Notes under the pieces: generated by a model
Told to the model about the DNA's origin: nothing
The model's input: the letters and a program-made list of their open reading frames with translations, nothing else
The model's database searches: none
Source of the DNA: Sulfurimonas sp.
GTDB lineage: Bacteria; Campylobacterota; Campylobacteria; Campylobacterales; Sulfurimonadaceae
Assembly (NCBI RefSeq): GCF_018698455.1
Contig: NZ_JABIOQ010000017.1
Location: 1-54,286, forward strand
Length of the DNA: 54,286 bases
Direction: 5' to 3'
In this document: in pieces, positions 19,223 through 53,282 of the stretch
How the letters are laid out: every line of letters starts with the position of its first letter
Position numbering within the stretch: the stretch's first letter is position 1
Made by a program: the position numbers and the translations under genes

Positions 19223-19858
19223 CTACTGTAAAATCTCATAAACCTTATTTTCACTTTTCATTTCTATGCTAAATTCTACTCGTCTCGCCTTATCTTTCTC
19301 TTTTAACTTAGAGAATGCCATTCCATTTGCTCTGAAATTCTTCTGGAGCCAAGTTCTATTTTCTTTTATCGTTTCATCTTCTAAAGAGTAGCAGAAAGAG
19401 AGAACTTCATATGCCCTACTTTGTGAAAGTTGCATATTTTTCAGATATATATCTTTTTCTGATAAAATACTTCCCCACTTGTCTGAGGTATGCCCTTCAA
19501 CACGAAGTTCTTTTATTTCATCTTTGTATTCTTTTGAAGTTAAGATTTTCATATATCTCGAGAAGAATTGCCCTAATATATTTTTAAACTCATCTTTCAT
19601 ATCACTTTTACTTACTTCAAACAGGACATCAGGAGAGTTAAATGAGATTTTATTGTCTTTGGTGATAGTAGCATCCCAAGTTTGCAGATCATTTTCAAAC
19701 TCTGCATATAAAGCTTCATTTAAATTTGCTTTAGTGTCTCGGTATGAGATTGCGATGTCTTTCATCTTTTGTTTTTCGGACTCGACCTCTATCATAAAAC
19801 TTATGGCTATAAACAAAAAAACTAACATCAGACCCGACATCATGTCCGATATGCTCAT
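19223..19858 (-). CDS. MotB/OmpA-like stator or peptidoglycan-anchor protein
   Basis: A 211-residue protein with one N-terminal membrane helix (SDMMSGLMLVFLFIAISFM) in which Asp5 sits where MotB/ZorB-type proteins carry the proton-binding Asp, then a helical linker and an OmpA-like peptidoglycan-binding domain: RVEGHTSDKW (119-128), NMQLSQSRAYEV (141-152) and ARRVEFSIEM (191-200). ATG at 19858 has no Shine-Dalgarno sequence. A CTG at 19882, 5 bases after AAAGGG, would give MKTNNHEWMSISD and may be the real start, overlapping the upstream gene. It pairs with the MotA/ExbB-like gene, so the two probably form an ion-driven envelope complex. Confidence 0.8.
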   Translation of the reverse strand: MSISDMMSGLMLVFLFIAISFMIEVESEKQKMKDIAISYRDTKANLNEALYAEFENDLQTWDATITKDNKISFNSPDVLFEVSKSDMKDEFKNILGQFFSRYMKILTSKEYKDEIKELRVEGHTSDKWGSILSEKDIYLKNMQLSQSRAYEVLSFCYSLEDETIKENRTWLQKNFRANGMAFSKLKEKDKARRVEFSIEMKSENKVYEILQ

Positions 19859-19868
19859 CCATTCATGA

Positions 19869-20456
19869 TTATTTGTTTTCAGTATTGCCCTTTAGTGTTT
19901 GAGTGATTGAGAGTATTGTGGCTACACCCATACCGACTATTGATGTGAAAAATGCTGTTTTTAGTCCTACTAAGATTTCATTAACACTGTTTACAATGTC
20001 AGCAGGATTAAAACCTTGCAAACCTATAAATATTCCCACAAATGTCCCAAGTACACCAACACTCACGATTTGACCTTTGAAATCTTTACCTGTTTTAACG
20101 TCAAGAAAAGCGAGTATGGAAATAATTATGACAAATATAATATTAATTGGGTCAAATAAAACATCGGTAAATTCAGACAATGATAGTGCTTCTTTCTCTT
20201 TAACAATCGAACAAATCCCAAGAGTAAGTTCAGTGCTGTTCTCAGAGATGATTTGTTTACTGATCCCCTCAACTCTAGCCAATTCACTTATACTTTTAAA
20301 GCATAGGTTTTCGTTTCTATAGTTTATGATTTTTTTAGCTTTTGCTTTACCTATGCCGTTTAACTCTAAAAGCTCTTTTGTTGTTGCATTATTTAAGTCT
20401 ACAAGTGAAAAGAGGCTTGAGACAGTTAGTAAAATAAGAAAAATGAATTTTAAAAT
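19869..20456 (-). CDS. ComEA-like helix-hairpin-helix domain fused to a MotA/ExbB-like channel; probable ATT start
   Basis: The continuous frame encodes 195 residues: a signal or anchor helix (LKFIFLILLTVSSLFS, about 2-17), a ComEA-type HhH domain (VDLNNATTKELLELNGIGKA at 19-38, then VEGISKQII at 62-70), and a MotA/TolQ/ExbB-like part with three membrane helices (about 103-118, 129-148, 165-187), including GVLGTFVGIFIGL and GLKTAFFTSIVGM. The first ATG/GTG/TTG is a TTG at 20282 inside the HhH domain. The only start that keeps the signal sequence is ATT at 20454-20456, with AAGGA (20464-20468) 7 bases upstream. The stop is 10 bases before the MotB-like ATG. I know no characterised protein with this fusion. 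Confidence 0.7.
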   Translation of the reverse strand: MLKFIFLILLTVSSLFSLVDLNNATTKELLELNGIGKAKAKKIINYRNENLCFKSISELARVEGISKQIISENSTELTLGICSIVKEKEALSLSEFTDVLFDPINIIFVIIISILAFLDVKTGKDFKGQIVSVGVLGTFVGIFIGLQGFNPADIVNSVNEILVGLKTAFFTSIVGMGVATILSITQTLKGNTENK

Positions 20457-20473
20457 AGTTGTATCCTTATCAG

Positions 20474-21307
20474 TTACTTATTCTGCTTCTCGTAAAAGTA
20501 ATTAGTCGCTTCTACAAATCCATCAACACTACCACAGTCAAACCTTTTACCATCAAACTTATATGCGAGGACTTTACCCTGTTTAGCTAAAGTTAAAAGT
20601 GCGTCAGTTATCTGAATCTCTCCACCTTTTCCCGGTGGTGTTTGTTCAATGACGTCAAATATTTCTGGTGTTAGAATGTATCTACCTATGATTGCTAAGT
20701 TAGATGGGGCATCTTTAGGATCTGGTTTTTCTACCATGTTATTTACTTTAAAAAGATTAGATTCTATCTCTTCTCCAGCGATTACACCATATTTGTTTGT
20801 ATGCTCTTTAGGTATCTCTTCAATGGCCACTATACAACAGTCAGGGTGTTTTTCATATATCTCTGTCATTTGAGTAAGAACTGCCTTGCTGTCGTTGTCA
20901 CATAAATCATCCGCAAGGATTACGGCAAATGGTTCATCTCCTATAAGAGTCTTTCCAGTGAGAATTGCATGACCAAGACCTTTCATCTCTACCTGTCTTG
21001 TGTAAGAAAATGTACACTTATTTATAACGCTTCTAATTTCTGTAAGATAGTGCTCTTTTGGTGTATCTTTGATTTGATGTTCAAGTTCATAAGAGATGTC
21101 AAAATGATCTTCTATGCTGCGTTTACCACGTCCAGTAACTATAGCCATAGTACTCATTCCAGCTTCTATGGCTTCTTCAATGCCATACTGAAGTAGTGGT
21201 TTAGTAAGTACGGGTAACATCTCTTTAGGGATTGCTTTAGTAGCAGGTAAGAATCTTGTTCCGTAACCTGCAGCTGGGAATAGGCACTTTTTTATCTGTT
21301 TTGTCAT
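20474..21307 (-). CDS. galU: UTP-glucose-1-phosphate uridylyltransferase
   Basis: Makes UDP-glucose from UTP and glucose-1-phosphate for envelope polysaccharides. At 277 residues it has the usual bacterial GalU length. The nucleotide-binding signature AAGYGTRFLPATKAIPKEML is at the N-terminus, followed by VTGRGKRSIEDHFD and ADDLC, and the C-terminal GKGGEIQITDAL and KFDGKRFDCG motifs are intact. The HhH-MotA gene begins 17 bases after its stop on the same strand, with its Shine-Dalgarno bases just past the galU stop, so the three genes are probably cotranscribed. Confidence 0.93.
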   Translation of the reverse strand: MTKQIKKCLFPAAGYGTRFLPATKAIPKEMLPVLTKPLLQYGIEEAIEAGMSTMAIVTGRGKRSIEDHFDISYELEHQIKDTPKEHYLTEIRSVINKCTFSYTRQVEMKGLGHAILTGKTLIGDEPFAVILADDLCDNDSKAVLTQMTEIYEKHPDCCIVAIEEIPKEHTNKYGVIAGEEIESNLFKVNNMVEKPDPKDAPSNLAIIGRYILTPEIFDVIEQTPPGKGGEIQITDALLTLAKQGKVLAYKFDGKRFDCGSVDGFVEATNYFYEKQNK

Positions 21308-44004: not shown

Positions 44005-44580
44005 TTATAGTGCAAGCGTGATATTTACAGTTGGTGTTACCGATGCATCAGGCCAAGGAATTGGTATAGGAGATGCAGCTTGTCCATCGCGCTTAAAGTC
44101 TCCATTACTAGAGTCTAACACACCGTCAGACATTGTGTCAAATGCAAGTGCAACATCAGTCGGCATTCCAGAGATGTATAATACATTTTTTGCACCATCG
44201 TTAGTGTTTCTCCACATCAAACGTGCAATGGCAGTACTAGTACTATATTTACCTTTAATTTTATAAGAACCGCCACTTGAGGTGGCTATATTTCCTACTG
44301 GAATATCTAAACCAACGGCTTTCAATCTATCTTGAACAGTAACGGTGTTATCCAAACGAATATTATTATTCTGTCCATTTCCATTTGTATCCCCCAGAAT
44401 ACTCCCTGTCCTATCTTGATAAGAGTTAGCTGCAACTTGCCATCCCTTAATCCAAGTATTATAAATCTTTTTCTGCTCAGCAGAACTAATTAAATCCTTG
44501 CCTTTCATAACTCCACCAATGATCAAACCTATAATTACCAATATTATTGATAACTCTACAAGGGTAAAACCTTTTCTCAT
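44005..44580 (-). CDS. Type IV pilin-like pseudopilin (distal pilin of MSHA-type locus)
   Basis: 191 residues. The leader MRKG is followed by FTLVELSIILVIIGLIIGG, the class III signal and hydrophobic helix, with Glu5 of the mature protein present. The globular part contains TGSILGDTNGNGQNNN, a short Asp/Asn-rich loop that could bind calcium as in GspG pseudopilins. It is separated from mshG by 104 bases, so it may have a promoter of its own (AAGGAG Shine-Dalgarno precedes the ATG). It is probably a pilus or pseudopilus subunit; major versus minor cannot be decided. Confidence 0.85.
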   Translation of the reverse strand: MRKGFTLVELSIILVIIGLIIGGVMKGKDLISSAEQKKIYNTWIKGWQVAANSYQDRTGSILGDTNGNGQNNNIRLDNTVTVQDRLKAVGLDIPVGNIATSSGGSYKIKGKYSTSTAIARLMWRNTNDGAKNVLYISGMPTDVALAFDTMSDGVLDSSNGDFKRDGQAASPIPIPWPDASVTPTVNITLAL

Positions 44581-44684
44581 AACTAACTCCTTAATTTTGA
44601 TAATTTATTTTACCATAATTCTTAGACACTAACAAGCATAAGTCAAATTTAGTAAATAATATCTAAATATCACCCATTGAACTG

Positions 44685-45890
44685 TTATACTGCAGAAATA
44701 AGATCATACATAGGTCCCATTAAGCCAACCATTACAAGAGCCATAAAACCGCCTACTATGATGAGAACTACAGGCTCAATAACTTTACCTATATTCTCAG
44801 CAAAAAAGTCAACTTTTTCGTAGTAGTGTGCTGAGACTATGTCTAGTTGAGACTCTAATGTCCCTGCAGACTCTCCAATGCTCAGCATTCTTATGACAAA
44901 GGAAGGAAATATTTTTGTTTTTAAAAATGATGCTGAGAGTTGCTTACCGCTTGCAATATCATTTGTTATATCTTGAAGCGCTTTTTTGAAAATTTCATTT
45001 TCTATGTTTTTATTTAATGTATCCAAAGCACTGAATACTGGTATGCCCGACACAAGAGCAAGTCTTATATACTCTGATATAAATGCAGTATTAAAGCTCA
45101 AAATAACATTTTTCATTACAGGTATTTTTAGCAGGTATTTATCTGTATACCAACGAACTTTTCTATATTTCTTGTGTACTACTTTAAATGCTGCAATTAA
45201 AACAACAATACCAACAATCATATACCCTATATAGTTTGTAAGAAAATCAGATAGATTCATCATAAAAATTGTTAAAGGCGGTAACTTAACATCCATCTCT
45301 TCAAAAAGTTCCGTCATCTGTGGTAACACATAAATCATCCAAACGAACATGGCTCCCATGACAGCAGAAAAAGCAAATGAAGGATATATAAGTGCCGATT
45401 TTGCTTTCTTTTTAAGTGCAGTAATACGACGCAAAAAAGAGGCTCCCCGCTTCAGAGTAAGTTCAAGTTGACCAGTCTCTTCGCCAATTTTAATTAGGTT
45501 TAAAATCATAACACCTACTACATCTTTGTATAATTCAAATGCTACCGACAAAGATTTACCTCTATTTATATCATCAGCAATTTGAAACAGCATGTTTTTA
45601 AACTTTTTATTATCACTATCTTCTGCTAAATCAACAATACCCTGACGAAGAGGTAATCCTGCCTTTATCACAAGCTGGAAATTTTCCATCATTTCAATAA
45701 CTTCAGCAGGTGTGACTTTCGTTTTCGTTGATGGAATAGCAGAGGAGATAACTGCTGGAATTTCTAATATTTTCAGAGGGAGCACCATATCTCTCTCAAG
45801 CATTTTGAGCAGGTTATCATAACCTGTTGCTTCAAGAAAACTGATACCTTTTTGTCCCTGTTTATTTATATTTAAAACCACAAAATGCAT
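44685..45890 (-). CDS. mshG: Type II secretion/pilus inner-membrane platform protein
   Basis: 401 residues of the GspF/PilC/MshG family: two GspF domains (about 70-195 and 270-395), each ending in a membrane helix (KSALIYPSFAFSAVMGAMFV, and EPVVLIIVGGFMALVMVG near the C-terminus), with signature EMMENFQLVIKAGLPLRQG and IGEETGQLELTL. It starts with a TAATG overlap with the MshE stop. It is the membrane platform on which the ATPase works to assemble the pilus. Confidence 0.9.
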   Translation of the reverse strand: MHFVVLNINKQGQKGISFLEATGYDNLLKMLERDMVLPLKILEIPAVISSAIPSTKTKVTPAEVIEMMENFQLVIKAGLPLRQGIVDLAEDSDNKKFKNMLFQIADDINRGKSLSVAFELYKDVVGVMILNLIKIGEETGQLELTLKRGASFLRRITALKKKAKSALIYPSFAFSAVMGAMFVWMIYVLPQMTELFEEMDVKLPPLTIFMMNLSDFLTNYIGYMIVGIVVLIAAFKVVHKKYRKVRWYTDKYLLKIPVMKNVILSFNTAFISEYIRLALVSGIPVFSALDTLNKNIENEIFKKALQDITNDIASGKQLSASFLKTKIFPSFVIRMLSIGESAGTLESQLDIVSAHYYEKVDFFAENIGKVIEPVVLIIVGGFMALVMVGLMGPMYDLISAV

Positions 45891-47545
45891 TAGTTGACGA
45901 CTCTCTTTATTTCTTGAATTGTTGTAGTCCCCTGTAGAACTTTTATTTGCCCGTCCTCCTTTATAGAGTACATCCCTTTTTGATGGGCAACTTGCAGTAT
46001 CTCTTGTGTACTTGCTTCTCTTGTTATTAGAGCTTCTATATCCACATCAATCTCAAGAATTTCCATGATAGATTCTCTTCCTCCATACCCTGTACCTCTA
46101 CAATTATCACAACCTACTGCATCAAATAATTTGTAGTCCGGATATAAATCTAAAATACGATTTGAAAAACCTTGCTCAAGTAACTCTTCTTTTGTGATTT
46201 CTTTAGTAAGCTTACATACAGGGCATAATTTTCGAACTAATCTTTGAGCTATTACAGCCAAAAGCCCAGAACCGATGAGATAAGGTTCAATACCCAGATC
46301 GCTTAGCCTTGGAATGGTTCCGACTGCATCATTTGTATGTAAGGTCGATAAAACTAAGTGACCTGTAATTGACGCACGAACGGCTAACTCTGCCGTATCA
46401 TGGTCTCTTATTTCTCCAACGAGCATAACATCTGGATCCTGTCTCATAAATGCACGGATTGCAGCTTGAAAGTTATAACCTGCTTTTTCATTTAACTGAG
46501 TCTGCTTTATGAAAGAAAACTTATACTCAATCGGGTCTTCAATGGTTAATACATTTTTTTTAAGAGAGTCAATTTTACGAAGAGCCGAGTATAGAGTAGT
46601 CGTTTTACCACTACCCGTTGGTCCAACTATCAGTACAATACCATAGGATTTAGAGAAATATTTTTCTACCTTTTCAATATTTCTTTCGGTAAGGCCAAGT
46701 TGTGAAAGGCTAAACAGAGAAGAGTTTTTTCCTAATAATCGCATAACAATATTTTCACCATTATTGGTTGGTAGTGTCGAAATCCTCAAATCGAATTCTT
46801 CATTTAAGAACTCGTAACTAAAAGCACCATCCTGAGGTTTTCTTTGTTCAGAAATATCCAGATTACTGAGAATTTTTATACGGGCTGTCAGCTGAGTATG
46901 CAACTTAATCGGTAACGAATAAGTGTATTGTAGCACTCCATCAATACGGAAAGAAATATGGGAAGCTGAGCTCTCTGGTGATATATGAATATCTGTTGCA
47001 TGATCTTTTATGGCATTATTTAAGAGCAACTCAACGAGATGAGGCGTGTTTATTTCTATATCGCCAAGAGAATCTTGAATAATCTTTGTAATTTCTGCAT
47101 CAATAGGATTACTTAGTTGGTAATAGAAAATTTCCGCATATCTAGCAATTACTTTCTCATCTTCAACAACAAATTTTACATTTCTTTTCGAGATTTTTCG
47201 CAGATAATCAAGTGTAGCAAGATCATTTACCTCTTGTGTAGCTACTGTTAGAGTATGTTCATCTACACTAACAGGTAAGATATTTTTTGTTTTTGCTACA
47301 CTGTATGGAACCAGCCTTAGAGCTTCAATGGAAGGTATTATAAATTCTAAATTAAGATACGCCAGATTACTCTGCATAGCGATTGCTTGTGCTATTTCAC
47401 CTGAAGTTACAAAATCTAAGTCCTGCAGGGTTTCACCAAAAAATTTAGGATTTGCTTTTTGTACACCTAATGCTACTTCAATCTGCTCTTTAGTTATAAA
47501 ATTCAACTCTTCAAGGAGTTGACCTATTGGTTTGTTTTGTGTCAT
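45890..47545 (-). CDS. mshE: Pilus assembly/secretion ATPase, MshE/GspE type
   Basis: 551 residues. An N-terminal MshEN domain (about 1-150, LLEELNFITKEQIEVAL), of the type that binds c-di-GMP in Vibrio MshE, precedes the ATPase domain with Walker A GPTGSGKTT (308-316), the Asp box and Walker B (DPDVMLVGEIRDHDTAE), His box, and a four-Cys zinc element (CPVC...CDNC). It powers pilus extension. With the EAL phosphodiesterase in this window, c-di-GMP control of the pilus is possible but unproven. Confidence 0.92.
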   Translation of the reverse strand: MTQNKPIGQLLEELNFITKEQIEVALGVQKANPKFFGETLQDLDFVTSGEIAQAIAMQSNLAYLNLEFIIPSIEALRLVPYSVAKTKNILPVSVDEHTLTVATQEVNDLATLDYLRKISKRNVKFVVEDEKVIARYAEIFYYQLSNPIDAEITKIIQDSLGDIEINTPHLVELLLNNAIKDHATDIHISPESSASHISFRIDGVLQYTYSLPIKLHTQLTARIKILSNLDISEQRKPQDGAFSYEFLNEEFDLRISTLPTNNGENIVMRLLGKNSSLFSLSQLGLTERNIEKVEKYFSKSYGIVLIVGPTGSGKTTTLYSALRKIDSLKKNVLTIEDPIEYKFSFIKQTQLNEKAGYNFQAAIRAFMRQDPDVMLVGEIRDHDTAELAVRASITGHLVLSTLHTNDAVGTIPRLSDLGIEPYLIGSGLLAVIAQRLVRKLCPVCKLTKEITKEELLEQGFSNRILDLYPDYKLFDAVGCDNCRGTGYGGRESIMEILEIDVDIEALITREASTQEILQVAHQKGMYSIKEDGQIKVLQGTTTIQEIKRVVN

Positions 47546-47701
47546 ATTTACTCCTAATTTTATGGTTTTCTAGGTGCCATACAGATACCTTAACTTACAG
47601 TACAATTTAGACCAATTTCACAATCAGTTTTCTTGTCACAAAAACTTCTTTAGCTTCTTTTTGACATCTTTAATTTTATCTGCTACAGCTGTTCCAGCAC
47701 T

Positions 47702-48532
47702 TCAATCCGAATCAATTGTAATAATATATTGTTTTGTTCTTGTTCTTGTAGCTGGTGGATTTTCTGTTGCTACACAAGTAAAAAGTACTGTTCCTGGTGC
47801 ATCTGGAATTCCTGAAAAATCTGGATCACTAAAACTGATATTATGATTTAATGCAGGTGTACAGTTAATATTGACAGATGATATATTGTTTTCCACATAA
47901 AGAGTTGCATTATAATTAACACCAACAGTGCCAAGGGGCAATCTATATGTTATGAATTCAAATGGCTTATCATTACAATTTACATTCCGTTTTAATTCAT
48001 CGAGGCCAATCCACTCTACAATATCATCATAAAAGTCTACTATATTTACGGGGTTTGGTTCGTCGTCACCTTTTTCGGTTGGTCCATGTATTGTTACTAA
48101 ATTCGGTGTAACTGATATATCTTGAGCAGTTTGCATGTTGTAGTTTGCTCCGGCTGCTGCTACGATAAATGCTACATTATTTATTGTACGAGCAGGAGAA
48201 ATGCGATTATCAATAACTGTTAAATTTGTTGTATTAAAAGCACAAATATCAAAATTGTTAGCTAAATTAGAATCGGTAAAATAAGCGATAGGTTTAAGTG
48301 TACCAGTATTTGGCGAAAGATCAACATCAAACTCAGCTATGGTAGGCAAGTCTATCCATTCCATGGCATAACCAATAACGGAATCTTTCGCCGTTTTTAT
48401 CTGCTCTTTTGCTTCTGTTACCTTAGCACTCTCTCTCATGGATTTTAGTGCCTTTAATGACCCTCCGATTATGAGCCCGATAATAATCAGAACAATTGAT
48501 AATTCAATGAGTGTAAATGCTTTTCTTTTCAT
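47702..48532 (-). CDS. Pseudopilin with a C-terminal Ig-like (He_PIG type) domain
   Basis: 276 residues. Class III prepilin start MKRKAFTLIELSIVLIIIG with Ala at -1 instead of Gly. Residues about 30-190 form a pilin-type globular part. Residues about 195-276 read YRLPLGTVGVNYNATLYVEN ... SFSDPDFSGIPDAPGTVLFTC, like putative Ig/cadherin domains (LPxGTVGxxYxATL) used as adhesins. It ends at TGA (47702-47704); the same frame stays open for 21 more codons to a second TGA at 47636-47638 (see findings). MshE begins 156 bases downstream. Confidence 0.78.
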   Translation of the reverse strand: MKRKAFTLIELSIVLIIIGLIIGGSLKALKSMRESAKVTEAKEQIKTAKDSVIGYAMEWIDLPTIAEFDVDLSPNTGTLKPIAYFTDSNLANNFDICAFNTTNLTVIDNRISPARTINNVAFIVAAAGANYNMQTAQDISVTPNLVTIHGPTEKGDDEPNPVNIVDFYDDIVEWIGLDELKRNVNCNDKPFEFITYRLPLGTVGVNYNATLYVENNISSVNINCTPALNHNISFSDPDFSGIPDAPGTVLFTCVATENPPATRTRTKQYIITIDSD

Positions 48533-48535
48533 CTC

Positions 48536-49456
48536 TTAATCTCCCAATTCAAACACTCTTTTATATACCGTAGTATATAGTGGATGAATGTTGTCAACTT
48601 TCTTTAGAATATTTTTATATAAAGAGGTGGCTTTTTTATCTTGGAGTATATCGAGTGCACGAGCATAGGCAAAAATATTGTAAACATCAGTCGGATTTTT
48701 CTCGTAAGCCATTTTATAAAAAGAGTGTGCTCTTTTTGAATCTTCTTTATTTTCAAAATAGTAACCACTAAGTAACATCAGTCTACCACTTCTGTCAATC
48801 ATAATATAAGGAGAGAGATTACTGTAGTACTCCTCTTGGTTACTTTGTACTGCCCCATAGGCATATGAATAAACTAATTTACCATAATACTGTTCTTTGT
48901 CTATAATGGCTTTTGCATCAAACCAGGCCCCACGTTTTCCATAAAGATAACAAAGATTATTTTTAATTTTTTGATTTGTATTTCCGGACGATAGAAGCAT
49001 TTCGTAATAAATTATAGCTTCACTTTCATTGTTTTTTTGATATGCGTTTTGGGCTTTAAATAAAATATTTGATCTATCAAATTCAGATATTGTACTTTTA
49101 GGAGTTCTTGCATTTTGAGAATCTTTTTGATATGATAAAGTAGACTCTGTCTCTACAATGTATGCATCAGTAAACCCAATTTCATAAAACTGTTCAATTT
49201 CTGGTTTCAGTTTACTATATGATAAACTTCGAGCATACCTGATTGTCGTATAGTCACCAATTTTATGCAGATATGTTTTACTGCGAAGTTCTTTTGGAAC
49301 TTTTTTGAGTGTTTTTTTAGCTAAAGTTGCATTATGTGATGAAAACAACTGTATCGCATAAGCCTTTAATAAAAAATTTTCTTTTTGCGTTTGAAAAACT
49401 AATGTGTCCGAAGCAAATACAAGCAGAGAAAAACAAAGGGCTGTGAGTATCTTCAT
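48536..49456 (-). CDS. Periplasmic SPOR/TPR-like protein of the pilus operon (MshN position)
   Basis: 306 residues. Signal peptide MKILTALCFSLLVFA, then an SPOR-like segment (AYAIQLFSSHNATLAKKTLK...IGDYTTIRYA, about 32-76), and from about 125 on several degenerate tetratricopeptide repeats (ILFKAQNAYQKNNESEAIIYYEMLL, AHSFYKMAYEKNPTDVYN). It sits where MSHA loci carry the TPR protein MshN, but sequence similarity to MshN is not clear, so no symbol is given. Its start shares a base with the mshL stop region, indicating translational coupling. It is probably a periplasmic scaffold for secretin or pilus assembly. Confidence 0.72.
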   Translation of the reverse strand: MKILTALCFSLLVFASDTLVFQTQKENFLLKAYAIQLFSSHNATLAKKTLKKVPKELRSKTYLHKIGDYTTIRYARSLSYSKLKPEIEQFYEIGFTDAYIVETESTLSYQKDSQNARTPKSTISEFDRSNILFKAQNAYQKNNESEAIIYYEMLLSSGNTNQKIKNNLCYLYGKRGAWFDAKAIIDKEQYYGKLVYSYAYGAVQSNQEEYYSNLSPYIMIDRSGRLMLLSGYYFENKEDSKRAHSFYKMAYEKNPTDVYNIFAYARALDILQDKKATSLYKNILKKVDNIHPLYTTVYKRVFELGD

Positions 49457-50940
49457 TATTGTGTTACCCTAACTCTAATTAAGATAACGAGTTCCCGTTT
49501 TTCCTTTGTGTTTATTGTTTTTTTAAAAAGTGCTCCCAACCACGGAATATCACCTAAAATTGGAACTTTTTCTTCTGATTTAGAAATGCTATTATTTATT
49601 AAACCGCCTATCAGAACAAGATTGTTATTTTTGGCATATATTACTGTTCCAGCCTCTTTGATGTTCATAACCGGTGCCGTTGCTACAGATACTCCGTCTT
49701 CATTAATATAATCAACTACCTCTTCAATACTTGAAGTGATCGGGGTAATATTTAACATGATTTTTCCATCATCCATAACAGTAGGTGTTACACCCATTGT
49801 AACTCCATTTAAAACATCTCTTCGATTATATGTTACCTCACTCGTACTAGCTGACCCACCTGTTCCCTGGGTAATTTGAACCTCTTTCTCCCAAAATGGG
49901 ACAAGCTTCCCAGATGATATCATAGCGGACTGTCCACTCAACACGTTGATACTTGGGTTAGAGAGAGTGTCAACATCTCCTGATTTATCAAGTGCATCTA
50001 TAACGGCTGAAAAATTATTTGCTGTGTAAGACATTGTTCCTGCAACAGCACCACCTAAGCCAAGTGTTTGCTGTAGTTGAAACTGGTCACCGGTAGTAAA
50101 TACACTCTCTGATAGAGCATCCCAATTAACACCTAGTGCATGAGAGTCATTTAAAATCACTTCTAATATTTTTGCTTCAATCAACACCTGTTTGTTAGAC
50201 TGTTCCTTGATTCTGCTTATTACATTTCCAATGGCATCTATATTATTCTTTCTGTCATATACACTTAATATTCCACTAAATTTGTTGAGTGTGTATTTTC
50301 CATCAGAGCTCATCAGAGATGCTATATTTTTTTCAAGTTGTTCGTAAAAATTGTTTATATCTTTTGGGTTCTCAAACTTGAGTTTAAATTCACCTTTGAT
50401 TCCATCTGAACTACCCTCTCCCCCTGCTGAGTTTAGTGTATCTCCTCCAAGTTCCGTTGTATAGGAAGATGATGTGTGAATATAAGGTATTAAAAAGTTT
50501 TTTTGCTCAAACTGCTTCACATGTAAAATATTACCTCTTAATTCATAGAAACAGCCAGTGATATTCATAATTATGTCAAGAGTGTCTTTTAGCCCTGCTT
50601 CTTTGACGGAAATAGTAATAGGAGTATTGGTATCTACATCCTTATCGATAATCAAATTTAAACCAGATGTCTTTGATATTAAATACATCACTTTGTTAAA
50701 GTTTGCCTGTTCTATGGAAAATGTTATTTTTTTATCGTCAAAAACAGAAATCTCTTCATAAACTGAAGGCAGTCTCATTTCAGGTACATTGTTTTTTTGA
50801 TCTAAATTTTTAAAGGCTTCAATCTCTTGACTTGCAGTTTTCATCTTTGACAACTCTATATCTTTGAGCGAGGGGGTATCATGATTTGAACACCCAGAAA
50901 AGAGAAATAATAGTGTAATTACTGGAACAATGAAAGCCAT
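49456..50940 (-). CDS. mshL: MSHA-type pilus secretin
   Basis: 494-residue outer-membrane secretin lipoprotein: signal peptide with lipobox FSGC (Cys17), N-terminal secretin domains (EISVFDDKKITFSIEQANFN at about 65-85; DTNTPITISVKEAGLKDTLD) and the C-terminal secretin domain (VLIEAKILEVILNDSHALG, ending VLIGGLINNSISKSEEKVPILGD and KKTINTKEKRELVILIRVR). This is the MshL/PilQ/GspD family; the operon supports MshL. It overlaps the upstream gene by 22 bases. Lgt in this window would acylate it. Confidence 0.9.
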   Translation of the reverse strand: MAFIVPVITLLFLFSGCSNHDTPSLKDIELSKMKTASQEIEAFKNLDQKNNVPEMRLPSVYEEISVFDDKKITFSIEQANFNKVMYLISKTSGLNLIIDKDVDTNTPITISVKEAGLKDTLDIIMNITGCFYELRGNILHVKQFEQKNFLIPYIHTSSSYTTELGGDTLNSAGGEGSSDGIKGEFKLKFENPKDINNFYEQLEKNIASLMSSDGKYTLNKFSGILSVYDRKNNIDAIGNVISRIKEQSNKQVLIEAKILEVILNDSHALGVNWDALSESVFTTGDQFQLQQTLGLGGAVAGTMSYTANNFSAVIDALDKSGDVDTLSNPSINVLSGQSAMISSGKLVPFWEKEVQITQGTGGSASTSEVTYNRRDVLNGVTMGVTPTVMDDGKIMLNITPITSSIEEVVDYINEDGVSVATAPVMNIKEAGTVIYAKNNNLVLIGGLINNSISKSEEKVPILGDIPWLGALFKKTINTKEKRELVILIRVRVTQ

Positions 50941-51407
50941 TTTAGTCCTTTGTTAGTTTTTATTTGTACAGAATAGTTTGTTATTTTTGTAACTACTGTA
51001 GTATTATCCACTTTGCTACCCACTTTGACTATCAAGTTGTTAATTATAGCAGTTTTATCATCAGGAAACAGTGCTTGAAGTTTGTATGTATAGGTTTTTT
51101 CACTAGCAGACTTAACTGAAGCAACTCTAGCACCTTCTTGTTTTTTGTAAAATAGATTGTCAGTCGCCCACTTAGCATTTTTTTTTCTTAACAATGATTT
51201 ATTTTTAATCTTTTGTAATGATTTATATTTTGATTCAATTTGGAAATATGCATTTGTTTTTACATCTAAATCTTTATTTAAATATTTTTTATATGTTGGA
51301 AAAAGATAGTGGGCATTATCTACAATTTCCTTATTAAAATAATAGACTAACAAAGAGATCATAAAAGGTAAAATCAGTAAAAAAAACTGTTTCCTACTTA
51401 GATACAT
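50919..51407 (-). CDS. Bitopic MshK/PilP-like protein of the pilus operon
   Basis: About 162 residues from the preferred start MYLSRKQFF at 51405-51407, which has GGAG 6 bases upstream; a longer reading from 51434 is less supported. One N-terminal membrane helix (FFLLILPFMISLLVYYF), a Lys-rich linker and a small C-terminal beta domain (AIINNLIVKVGSKVDNTTVVTKIT) that resembles the short homology-region domains of GspC/PilP/MshK. It overlaps the stop of the previous gene by 14 bases. It likely links the inner-membrane complex to MshL. Confidence 0.65.
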   Translation of the reverse strand: MYLSRKQFFLLILPFMISLLVYYFNKEIVDNAHYLFPTYKKYLNKDLDVKTNAYFQIESKYKSLQKIKNKSLLRKKNAKWATDNLFYKKQEGARVASVKSASEKTYTYKLQALFPDDKTAIINNLIVKVGSKVDNTTVVTKITNYSVQIKTNKGLKWLSLFQ

Positions 51408-51882
51408 TACTTTCTCCATTATATTGCTGAACAACTTTAATTGTTCCTTTTAAACTTGACTCATCCATTTTGAGCTCTCTAAATTCCAAAAATCCATTTT
51501 TAAATTTCATATTTACAAAATTAGCGAGTTGATCTTTATCTCCCCTATTAAGGCTATATGATAAATCAATATTTTTTGAAATATTTTCTGAGTAAATATA
51601 TCTACTTACGATAAAGTTATATTTGTTTACATTATCATCAAAAAATGTGATCAGGTTTTCATCACTATTTTGAGAAGAATTTTGTTTAGTCTTAATTATT
51701 GGAAAAATATCATTATTAATCCATTTGTTTATTTGTGACACTTTTTCCATCTTTTTTATGTTTTTTTTGTATTGCCTATTAATTGCTTCAACTTTAAGCT
51801 GCTCTATTTCAAACCAATCTATCAGTGTCAACAACAATACTAAGATTGCAAAATTGATGGTAATAAAAATAATATTTCTCAT
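51394..51882 (-). CDS. MshJ/PilO-like inner-membrane protein
   Basis: 162 residues: one N-terminal membrane helix (FITINFAILVLLLTLIDWF), a coiled-coil segment (about 25-55) and a small periplasmic ferredoxin-like domain. Order in the operon and this layout fit MshJ/PilO. Sequence alone gives no sure family. The start overlaps the stop of the preceding gene as TAATG, so the two are tightly coupled. Confidence 0.65.
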   Translation of the reverse strand: MRNIIFITINFAILVLLLTLIDWFEIEQLKVEAINRQYKKNIKKMEKVSQINKWINNDIFPIIKTKQNSSQNSDENLITFFDDNVNKYNFIVSRYIYSENISKNIDLSYSLNRGDKDQLANFVNMKFKNGFLEFRELKMDESSLKGTIKVVQQYNGESNVSK

Positions 51883-53282
51883 TATCTTCTTCTTTTTCTC
51901 AAAATTTCTGTTTTATTTCTCTCTTTTTTAGAACTTTCTATGGTTAAAGTTGTATCAAAATTCATTTTTGAGTAGTCTGTATTATTTTTATATGTACTAC
52001 TAAATGTTGAATTAATATCTTCAAACTTATTAAAAAAAAGTTTTTCAAATCGATAAAGGTCTTTAAGGCTTCTAAAAGAGTGTTTAAATTTTACATTTAA
52101 TTCCAAACTCTTGTCAAGATATTGCCATTGTAATTCTTGTGGTTTTAGCAGCTCAATAAGTGGTTTTAATGTCAAGATAAGATCTAAAGGGTGATACTTT
52201 AGATATTGTTCTACAATTTGAATATATTTTAAACTTGAATGAAGCTCTTCGATGGAATAAGTATGTGTTTTATTAGCTGTTTTATTTAATTTATCTTTAA
52301 TTATTTCATAGTTTTGAAGTGAATCAGCATATGAGGAATATTTTTCATAAGTATAAAAGAAACTTATTAAAACAAATATTATCGATGCAGTAAGTAATAC
52401 TTTTGAAATTATATTATATTGTTTATGTGCTAAAACCGAAGTTGGCAAAAATTGATATTTTTTTGGTATAAACCAGCTTCCTATAGCAAAGATATGTTCC
52501 TGAGCTTCTTCGTATTCAAATCCTTGTATGAATGTATTTGGATATAGTACAGTAACCCCTAACTCAGATGACATGCAGATATGCTCTACCATAATTTCAT
52601 CTATAACTATCGAGCCACTCAATGCAATAATCGAAAAGTTTATTTCACGAAATTGTTGCTGTGCATATGCGATTGATTGGGTAATCCCTTCAACTAAGTT
52701 TAACTCTCGAAGTTCTGCATTATCCGCTGTAATTCTATGTTCACGGCTAAAAATAATTGCTTGTTTATGAATAGCGATTATAGTTATTTTATTGGCTTGA
52801 GTATGCACTGAAAAAAAGGTCTCATCCTTGATACATTCACACGATATTCCAAGTAATGAAAATTTATTTGTACTCGCACTTTTTAGCTCGTTCAAGTTTT
52901 TAATTAATTCTAGTACACTTAGATAATTATCTTCGAATACTCCATCAATTAAATATGTAGTTGTTTCATCATTTATATTTTTCGGTAATGGCACATAGTT
53001 GAAAATTAATTTCTTATTAATGTCTACTTCATGTAGTTGCATTAAGATTAAGCTTCTTATAACACTTTCATTATTTATAAGAGATTCGATAGTGATTTTT
53101 TCAACTACATCTTCATCTTGCTCAATACTTAAATAATAAGACTTTTTATTTTTTAAAAATTCACTTAACTCAGATAAGTCAATAATTTGCTGATTGATAA
53201 TAGAAAACTGTTTACCATTTTTTTGTACAAAAAGAACATAAACATAATCATTTTGAATATTCAGGGCATAAAACTGTTTCAT
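51882..53282 (-). CDS. MshI-like protein: PilM-like cytoplasmic domain plus PilN-like membrane/periplasmic part
   Basis: 466 residues. Residues 1-290 are cytoplasmic and PilM-like in layout (VVEKITIESLINNESVIRSL and NKLVEGITQSIAYAQQQ-type helices), followed by one membrane helix (about 307-327, LLTASIIFVLISFFYTY), then a coiled coil and a periplasmic PilN-like domain. In MSHA loci this corresponds to MshI. It is the first gene of the pilus operon. A TATAAGT/ACTTATA dyad (53318-53334) upstream could be its operator or promoter. Confidence 0.65.
   Translation of the reverse strand: MKQFYALNIQNDYVYVLFVQKNGKQFSIINQQIIDLSELSEFLKNKKSYYLSIEQDEDVVEKITIESLINNESVIRSLILMQLHEVDINKKLIFNYVPLPKNINDETTTYLIDGVFEDNYLSVLELIKNLNELKSASTNKFSLLGISCECIKDETFFSVHTQANKITIIAIHKQAIIFSREHRITADNAELRELNLVEGITQSIAYAQQQFREINFSIIALSGSIVIDEIMVEHICMSSELGVTVLYPNTFIQGFEYEEAQEHIFAIGSWFIPKKYQFLPTSVLAHKQYNIISKVLLTASIIFVLISFFYTYEKYSSYADSLQNYEIIKDKLNKTANKTHTYSIEELHSSLKYIQIVEQYLKYHPLDLILTLKPLIELLKPQELQWQYLDKSLELNVKFKHSFRSLKDLYRFEKLFFNKFEDINSTFSSTYKNNTDYSKMNFDTTLTIESSKKERNKTEILRKRRR

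What the first reader, a model, noticed from the sequence alone, without database searches (positions are those of the whole stretch)
19223..20456. HhH(ComEA)-MotA/ExbB fusion paired with a MotB/OmpA-like protein: candidate new energised envelope machine
The upstream gene joins a secreted-type ComEA helix-hairpin-helix DNA-binding domain (LNNATTKELLELNGIGKAKA, preceded by a signal-like helix) in frame to a three-helix MotA/ExbB-like channel. The next gene is a single-helix MotB-like protein with a membrane Asp (Asp5) and an OmpA peptidoglycan domain. A DNA-binding domain on the outer face of an ion-driven peptidoglycan-anchored stator could mean DNA uptake, DNA sensing or defence. I know of no described system with this fusion. 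Established: MotA/MotB, ExbB/TolQ and Zorya ZorAB share the stator logic. Inference: the joint function.
Basis: partly seen in the sequence, partly recalled or inferred. Interest (0 to 1): 0.75.

Follow-up and report, generated by a model that had tools for sequence, protein, structure and literature searches.

The report
DNA-gripping domain on ion-driven stator
Sulfur-oxidising marine bacteria carry a conserved two-gene cassette that welds the DNA-grabbing protein of natural transformation onto a membrane ion motor related to a phage-defence system, which suggests an energised machine for handling DNA in the cell envelope.

Summary
The fusion is real. Window 20456-19872(-) encodes a signal-like leader, a ComEA (HhH)2 domain and a three-helix stator core in one open frame; zorB follows, overlapping by 14 bases. 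It is no sequencing error: 20 of 200 family genomes (own included) carry the open fusion and one more a broken copy. Both parts are under purifying selection; the 24 fusions tested form one clade. The stator is closest to Zorya type II ZorA2/ZorB2. It lacks two things type II defence needs: the cytoplasmic ZorA tail (8-13 residues follow residue 183) and ZorE (0 of 21 carrier genomes). No HhH/comEA gene was found in 47 non-fused relative loci. Topology puts the HhH in the periplasm. The key ComEA DNA-binding lysine is invariant (20/20); the second hairpin is altered. Most copies probably start with AUU/AUC, so gene callers can miss the HhH part. Best reading: a Zorya-II-like stator converted into an ion-driven periplasmic DNA-handling complex, perhaps for uptake of transforming DNA; function untested. 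My searches found no description of it.

The parts
20464..20468 (-). ribosome-binding site AAGGA of the fusion gene
   Evidence: best predicted pairing, for the ATT at 20456; place read from the sequence
20454..20456 (-). probable ATT start codon of the fusion
   Evidence: no ATG/GTG/TTG between the preceding stop and the HhH; ATT/ATC at the same place, 18 codons before the HhH anchor, favoured in 16 of 25 loci
20406..20456 (-). signal-like leader, residues 1-17
   Evidence: hydrophobic; residue 17 is A, S or G in 20 of 20 copies
20211..20405 (-). ComEA-type (HhH)2 domain, residues 18-82, with K39 and the invariant pair C52/C82
   Evidence: HHH_3 E 3.3e-15; model residues 15-80 match ComEA 8DSS, Z 12.5, rmsd 1.1 over 66
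20151..20210 (-). variable linker, residues 83-102
19872..20150 (-). ZorA2-like stator core, residues 103-195, three membrane helices, no cytoplasmic tail
   Evidence: PADLOC ZorA2 E 6e-17; PDB 8VVI Z 11.2, rmsd 1.5 over 91
19888..19893 (-). AAAGGG before the zorB CTG
   Evidence: read from the sequence; the same kind of stretch before CTG in relatives
19223..19882 (-). ZorB2-like partner from the probable CTG start to its stop; membrane Asp13, OmpA-like periplasmic domain
   Evidence: PADLOC ZorB2 E 7.4e-77; 8VVI sequence match E 2.6e-38; model Z 23.6; Asp13 invariant in 18 of 18
20474..21307 (-). upstream same-strand gene, GalU-like by eye, ending 18 bases before the fusion start; flank, not part of the pair

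Best explanation
The two genes make a ZorAB-type ion-driven stator in which every A subunit carries a ComEA DNA-binding domain in the periplasm and the cytoplasmic rod of Zorya has been lost. In a 5:2 assembly five HhH domains would ring the peptidoglycan-anchored ZorB dimer. Ion flow past the ZorB Asp turns or strains the A ring, and since the only sizeable appendage of the ring is the HhH set, the work is done on DNA in the periplasm: gripping, winding or holding DNA that has come in, upstream of ComEC. Shown by computation: the fusion, its conservation, one clade next to Zorya-II-like stators, absence of tail and ZorE, conserved channel residues, probable periplasmic HhH with the key ComEA lysine. 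Inferred: 5:2 assembly, ion flow, DNA binding, force on DNA, role in transformation.
For: Open fusion in 20 of 200 family genomes; dN/dS 0.06-0.17 for the HhH and 0.03-0.08 for the stator in the five of six pairs each with unsaturated dS, and HhH distances track ZorB distances (r 0.71, 0 of 5000 permutations as high, 23 fusions). One clade of 24 (100/99). zorB directly downstream in 25 of 27 loci. Channel residues T138, T171, S172 invariant in 20 of 20, ZorB Asp13 in 18 of 18. TM1-TM2 loop net positive and TM2-TM3 loop net negative in 20 of 20. K39, aligned by me to V. cholerae K63 and B. subtilis K164, 20 of 20. ComEC in 21 of 21 carriers. No standalone ComEA in 4 of 21 carriers, own genome included. 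A standalone comEA in 8 of 27 fusion loci and a ligase-like gene in 2 (Pfam ligase domain in one). No ZorE in 21 of 21 carriers.
Against: 17 of 21 carriers also keep a standalone ComEA. Missing ComEA is not special to carriers: 3 of 7 against 5 of 51 (p 0.048), and 4 of those 5 keep ComEC. The second hairpin changed in all fusions: D/E at 63 in 24 of 24 against K in 46 of 47 standalone; S at 66 in 24 of 24 against 2 of 47; mean net charge +1.8 against +4.8. The window's copy has Q68 and S74 where most fusions are basic. Ordinary comEA has some of the same neighbours. Distribution is patchy (20 of 200); one intact copy (L046) has no zorB nearby. The named carriers are metagenome or single-cell assemblies.
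Confidence: 0.4

Rival explanations
1. Periplasmic DNA sensor for defence: phage DNA caught by the HhH ring opens or strains the stator, changing ion flow or blocking DNA entry. It stays a Zorya-derived defence with a new trigger and no cytoplasmic effector of its own, or borrows a neighbouring nuclease.
For: Stator closest to Zorya II; patchy presence and varied sites; a Uma2-like gene (PADLOC candidate PDC-S03) in 7 of 27 loci.
Against: Tail and ZorE, both needed in Zorya II (PMC11890865, section read), are absent. Uma2 is missing in most loci and also lies beside ordinary comEA in 2 of 28. One partial match on viral contigs; no plasmid record covers 80% of the fusion.
Confidence: 0.22
2. 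The HhH domain has been turned to another ligand (protein or glycan) and the stator does envelope work unrelated to DNA.
For: Uniform change of the second hairpin and lower net charge; many neighbours look like sugar-nucleotide or glycan genes by eye.
Against: First hairpin and K39 invariant; comEA itself lies beside dehydratase-like or pglB-like genes (7 of 28), so such neighbours are weak evidence.
Confidence: 0.2
3. Passive anchor: the stator only tethers ComEA to membrane and peptidoglycan, as Gram-positive ComEA is tethered by one helix; no ion-driven work.
For: Membrane-bound ComEA exists in Gram-positives (PMC13168374 passages); no cytoplasmic output part is left.
Against: Channel residues and the ZorB Asp are invariant and the stator is more constrained than the HhH; a plain anchor would not need them.
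Confidence: 0.13
4. Artefact or decaying gene: a frame accident joining two genes, or a product that is not made.
For: No standard start codon before the HhH in the window and in 12 others of 25 loci; two copies with a broken frame (G161, L079) and one with a stop in the leader (G119).
Against: Open frame in 20 of 200 genomes, purifying selection on both parts, co-divergence with ZorB.
Confidence: 0.02

Closest known systems
Zorya type II ZorA2/ZorB2 (PDB 8VVI, Sulfuricurvum kujiense)
   Same: Three-helix A core (30% identity, rmsd 1.5 over 91 residues); B subunit alike over its length (32%, Z 23.6); membrane Asp; nearest stators in the tree include a system with a ZorE2-like gene.
   Different: No cytoplasmic tail (S. 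kujiense ZorA has 378 residues, tail from about residue 100), no ZorE in 21 carriers, ComEA domain and leader added; NCBIfam ZorA2 and ZorB2 cut-offs not reached (42 of 700 and 175 of 400 bits).
ComEA, DNA receptor of natural transformation
   Same: (HhH)2 fold (8DSS Z 12.5), leader, K39, conserved Cys pair.
   Different: Fused to a stator; altered second hairpin. Gram-negative ComEA is described as freely diffusing and ComEA as without external energy source (PMC13168374 passages).
Other 5:2 stators: ExbBD, TolQR, MotAB/PomAB
   Same: Stator plan; A-core folds comparable (TolQ and ExbB Z to 10.9, PomA 8.8, MotA 7.8; the best are tied with 8VVI by Z alone).
   Different: Larger rmsd (about 3 and more) and lower identity (12-16% in TolQ/ExbB rows); no DNA-binding domain known to me (recalled).

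Membership tests
Zorya type II | ZorA2-type membrane core | tested here: met
   PADLOC ZorA2 E 6e-17 over profile 17-109 of 590; 8VVI core match
Zorya type II | cytoplasmic ZorA tail | tested here: not met
   8-13 residues follow residue 183 in 20 of 20 copies
Zorya type II | ZorB2 with membrane Asp and peptidoglycan-type domain | tested here: met
   PADLOC ZorB2 E 7.4e-77, Asp13 18 of 18, fold; binding itself untested
Zorya type II | ZorE effector | tested here: not met
   0 of 21 carrier genomes; found in G363
Zorya type II | curated NCBIfam cut-offs for ZorA2 and ZorB2 | tested here: not met
   42 against 700 and 175 against 400 bits
5:2 ion-driven stator | A core with Ser/Thr ring positions and B helix with Asp | tested here: met
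   T138, T171, S172 in 20 of 20; Asp13 in 18 of 18; that these form the ring is inferred
5:2 ion-driven stator | 5:2 assembly and ion flow | not testable with these tools
   only single chains could be modelled
ComEA | (HhH)2 fold of ComEA type | tested here: met
   HHH_3 over cut-off; 8DSS Z 12.5
ComEA | curated ComEA models | tested here: inconclusive
   TIGR00426 51.2 against 53.1 bits, 53.2 with neighbours in the frame; TIGR01259 55.8 against 152.35
ComEA | key DNA-binding lysine | tested here: met
   K39 20 of 20; equivalence to V. cholerae K63 and B. subtilis K164 by my alignment
ComEA | needed for uptake of transforming DNA | not testable with these tools
   needs an experiment

The most novel reading that the evidence does not exclude
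An actively driven ComEA: a rotary, ion-powered ring of DNA-binding domains that reels double-stranded DNA through the periplasm, evolved by converting a phage-defence motor into a DNA-uptake motor.
Probability: 0.3. Interest if true: 0.92.

Novelty: new variant of a known kind. Interest (0 to 1): 0.72.

Why it matters
How DNA is pulled into the periplasm is an open question, and ComEA is described as 'not an active motor protein' without 'an external energy source' (PMC13168374, passages). A ComEA built into an ion-driven stator would be an exception, or at least a natural construct for testing whether stators can work on DNA. It also suggests a route by which a defence motor changes trade: tail and nuclease gone, a periplasmic DNA-binding domain gained. 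The unusual start codons mean that gene callers limited to ATG, GTG and TTG can hide the fusion.

Tried and rejected
Sequencing error or chance joining: rejected. Separate comEA and zorA genes in relatives: none found in 47 non-fused loci (tblastn 1e-6; several loci are cut close to the stator, L082 by about 100 bases). Fusion beyond the family: the phylum sample of 397 genomes listed it at full length only in G000 and G019 (the row list is cut, but full-length rows would rank first); the genome-contig scan gave 25 fusion loci of 63, one labelled Sulfurospirillum. That scan rests on two stator peptides, so independent fusions elsewhere could be missed. Mobile elements: 1 viral contig matched over residues 132-184 only; 12 plasmid records, none covering 80%. 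'The fusion replaces ComEA': only suggestive. Uma2 as effector: not convincing. ComEA-domain tree: 66 columns, poorly resolved; one fused clade not rejected (p-AU 0.36), but two fusion pieces sat among the 'others' in that test. Literature searches that yielded nothing used.

Full report
What is there. On the minus strand, 20456-19872, one open frame of 195 codons holds a hydrophobic leader, a ComEA-type helix-hairpin-helix domain (HHH_3 E 3.3e-15) and a three-helix stator core; the next gene, ending at 19223, encodes the B subunit. The genes overlap by 14 bases if zorB starts at CTG 19882.

It is conserved. Of 200 genomes of the family, 20 (own included) hold the open two-domain frame: 18 of the other 19 match from residue 1, 2 or 5 on, one (G119) from residue 12, its leader being cut by a stop; one more genome (G161) has a broken frame. 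They lie in four genus groups. The 25 fusion records are labelled Sulfurimonas or relatives and are metagenome or single-cell assemblies. zorB follows directly in 25 of 27 loci; in L041 it lies 3.5 kb away and in L046 none was found.

It is one protein under selection. Between six close pairs, dN/dS is 0.06-0.17 for the HhH and 0.03-0.08 for the stator, in the five pairs each whose dS was not saturated; dS is high, so the ratios are rough. HhH distances follow ZorB distances (r 0.71, 0 of 5000 permutations as high, 23 fusions). The linker has no Met in 17 of 20 copies, so no conserved ATG could start the stator alone; GTG and TTG were not tested.

Odd starts. In 13 of 25 analysed loci there is no ATG, GTG or TTG before the HhH. 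In 16 of 25 an ATT or ATC exactly 18 codons before the HhH anchor has the best or equal-best ribosome-binding site; in 8 a standard codon stands at or near that place (in one of these, L040, an ATT ties with the ATG); L044 fits neither. zorB has CTG 6-7 codons before its first Trp in 9 of 18, ATG 4-8 codons before it in 8, and neither in 1; two of the nine have other possible starts just upstream. A caller limited to ATG, GTG and TTG would begin the window's gene at a TTG inside the HhH.

What the stator is. The best family models are ZorA2 (E 6e-17, profile 17-109 of 590) and ZorB2 (E 7.4e-77, almost full length). AlphaFold models (mean pLDDT 81.5 and 82.2; pTM 0.47 and 0.72, so the placing of the fusion's domains is uncertain) match PDB 8VVI, the Zorya II complex of Sulfuricurvum kujiense: A core Z 11.2, rmsd 1.5 over 91 residues, 30% identity; B Z 23.6, rmsd 4.3 over 211. 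By Z alone the A core ties with type I ZorA, TolQ and ExbB; rmsd, identity and sequence models favour ZorA2. The HhH matches ComEA 8DSS, Z 12.5, rmsd 1.1 over 66. In a tree of 41 stators the 24 fusions form one clade (100/99); their neighbours are the stator of G363 and those of Candidatus Thiovulum and L081, a grouping with 94/95 support. The 17 non-fused stators of that tree extend well past the third helix. No HhH or comEA was found in 47 non-fused loci. G363 has a ZorE2-like gene in two pieces; the ZorE model also rang in 1 of 14 control genomes. The likely path: a Zorya-II-like stator lost tail and ZorE and gained ComEA.

Where the HhH sits. Type II ZorAB has five A and two B subunits and a cytoplasmic C-terminal extension of A (PMC11890865: abstract, passages and its first Results section). 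With three membrane helices the N-terminus should be periplasmic (inference). Charges agree: TM1-TM2 loop net positive 20/20, TM2-TM3 loop net negative 20/20, stretch before TM1 net negative 15/20; residue 17 is A, S or G in 20/20. C52 and C82 are invariant in 20/20 fusions and each present in 49 of 50 rows counted as standalone.

Can it bind DNA? The lysine that matters most in V. cholerae (K63; PMC3879209 passages) and B. subtilis (K164; PMC9747964 passages) corresponds to K39 by my alignment and is invariant. Against this, the second hairpin has D or E at 63 (24/24; standalone K 46/47) and S at 66 (24/24; standalone 2/47), and mean net charge is +1.8 against +4.8. Positions 68 and 74, which I align to B. 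subtilis K193 and K199, are K in 16 of 20 and R/K in 19 of 20; the window's copy has Q and S there. I read this as specialisation with DNA binding probably kept; it is not shown.

Context. All 21 carriers have ComEC. 17 of 21 have a standalone ComEA; G000, G119, G154 and the less complete G196 do not. Among 58 genus genomes drawn at 97% completeness or more, standalone ComEA is missing in 3 of 7 carriers and 5 of 51 others (p 0.048), but 4 of those 5 keep ComEC, so this is weak. A standalone comEA lies in the same stretch in 8 of 27 loci, where chance placement would give about 0.2 in the 24 loci summed, with an assumed density of 1.5 comEA per 2.1 Mb. Yet ordinary comEA loci of genomes, 28 examined within about 1.5 kb, also show a ligase-like gene (3), a Uma2-like gene (2), a dehydratase-like gene (4) or a pglB-like gene (3), and GalU in none, so a shared native site may explain the closeness. 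A ligase-like gene sits upstream in L034 (Pfam ligase domains) and, split, in L035. Lig E is predicted periplasmic, and most bacteria with it are noted as competent or encoding competence genes (PMC10799422 passages).

How it most likely works. Five HhH domains circle a ZorB dimer held by peptidoglycan. Ion flow drives the A ring; with no rod in the cytoplasm, the work appears in the periplasm, on DNA. I give 0.40 to DNA handling for uptake, 0.22 to DNA sensing for defence, 0.20 to another ligand, 0.13 to a passive anchor and 0.02 to an artefact. ComEA is described as lacking an external energy source (PMC13168374 passages); this protein would have one.

Known or not. Searches for Zorya with ComEA, MotA/ExbB with helix-hairpin-helix, ZorA/ZorB, ComEA/fused/MotA and ComEA/stator/proton motive force (no paper) showed no such fusion in the listings or in the passages I read. 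In the MotAB evolution paper PMC12505986 the one 'comea' hit is an author's name (passages). Most subscription journals are not in that library. It is not Zorya II, since tail and ZorE were tested and not met; it works, as far as can be told, like a 5:2 stator, and is a new variant of that kind.

Noticed in passing
L147, L148, L150, L151, L153: Another ZorAB variant in Sulfurimonadaceae and a relative: short-tailed ZorA (210-212 aa) and ZorB beside a gene for a PLD-like protein with a signal-like N-terminus (Pfam PLDc_2 E 1e-50 and DrmC-like for the L148 copy; the others by eye) and two small genes.
   Followed up: partly
L083, L089, L103, L109: Helicobacter species carry long-tailed ZorA2-like stators (about 640-1130 aa) with ZorB downstream, beside exbB/exbD- or tolQ/tolR-like genes (by eye); L089, L103 and L109 share the order, which looks like a fixed rather than a mobile place.
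   Followed up: partly
window 20454-20456 and 19880-19882; same places in relatives: Both genes of the pair seem to use non-AUG starts in many genomes: AUU/AUC for the fusion (16 of 25), CUG for zorB (9 of 18).
   Followed up: partly
L038, L041, L044, L047, L049, L051, L061: A Uma2-like gene (PADLOC PDC-S03 for the L041 copy) lies in 7 of 27 fusion loci, just upstream in several.
   Followed up: partly
L034 6635-7245, L035 8704-8910; L192, L200, L202: A ligase-like gene with a signal-like N-terminus lies near the fusion in two loci and near ordinary comEA in 3 of 28 loci.
   Followed up: partly
L046, L053: Two short genes that look like a nucleotidyltransferase/HEPN pair (by eye) abut the start of the fusion.
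   Followed up: no
L152 (G363:C62): The nearest ZorE-bearing relative has its ZorE2-like gene in two pieces.
   Followed up: no
window 44005-53282: A cluster of type II secretion or type IV pilus-like ORFs (ATPase, secretin, pseudopilins; by eye) in the same window.
   Followed up: no
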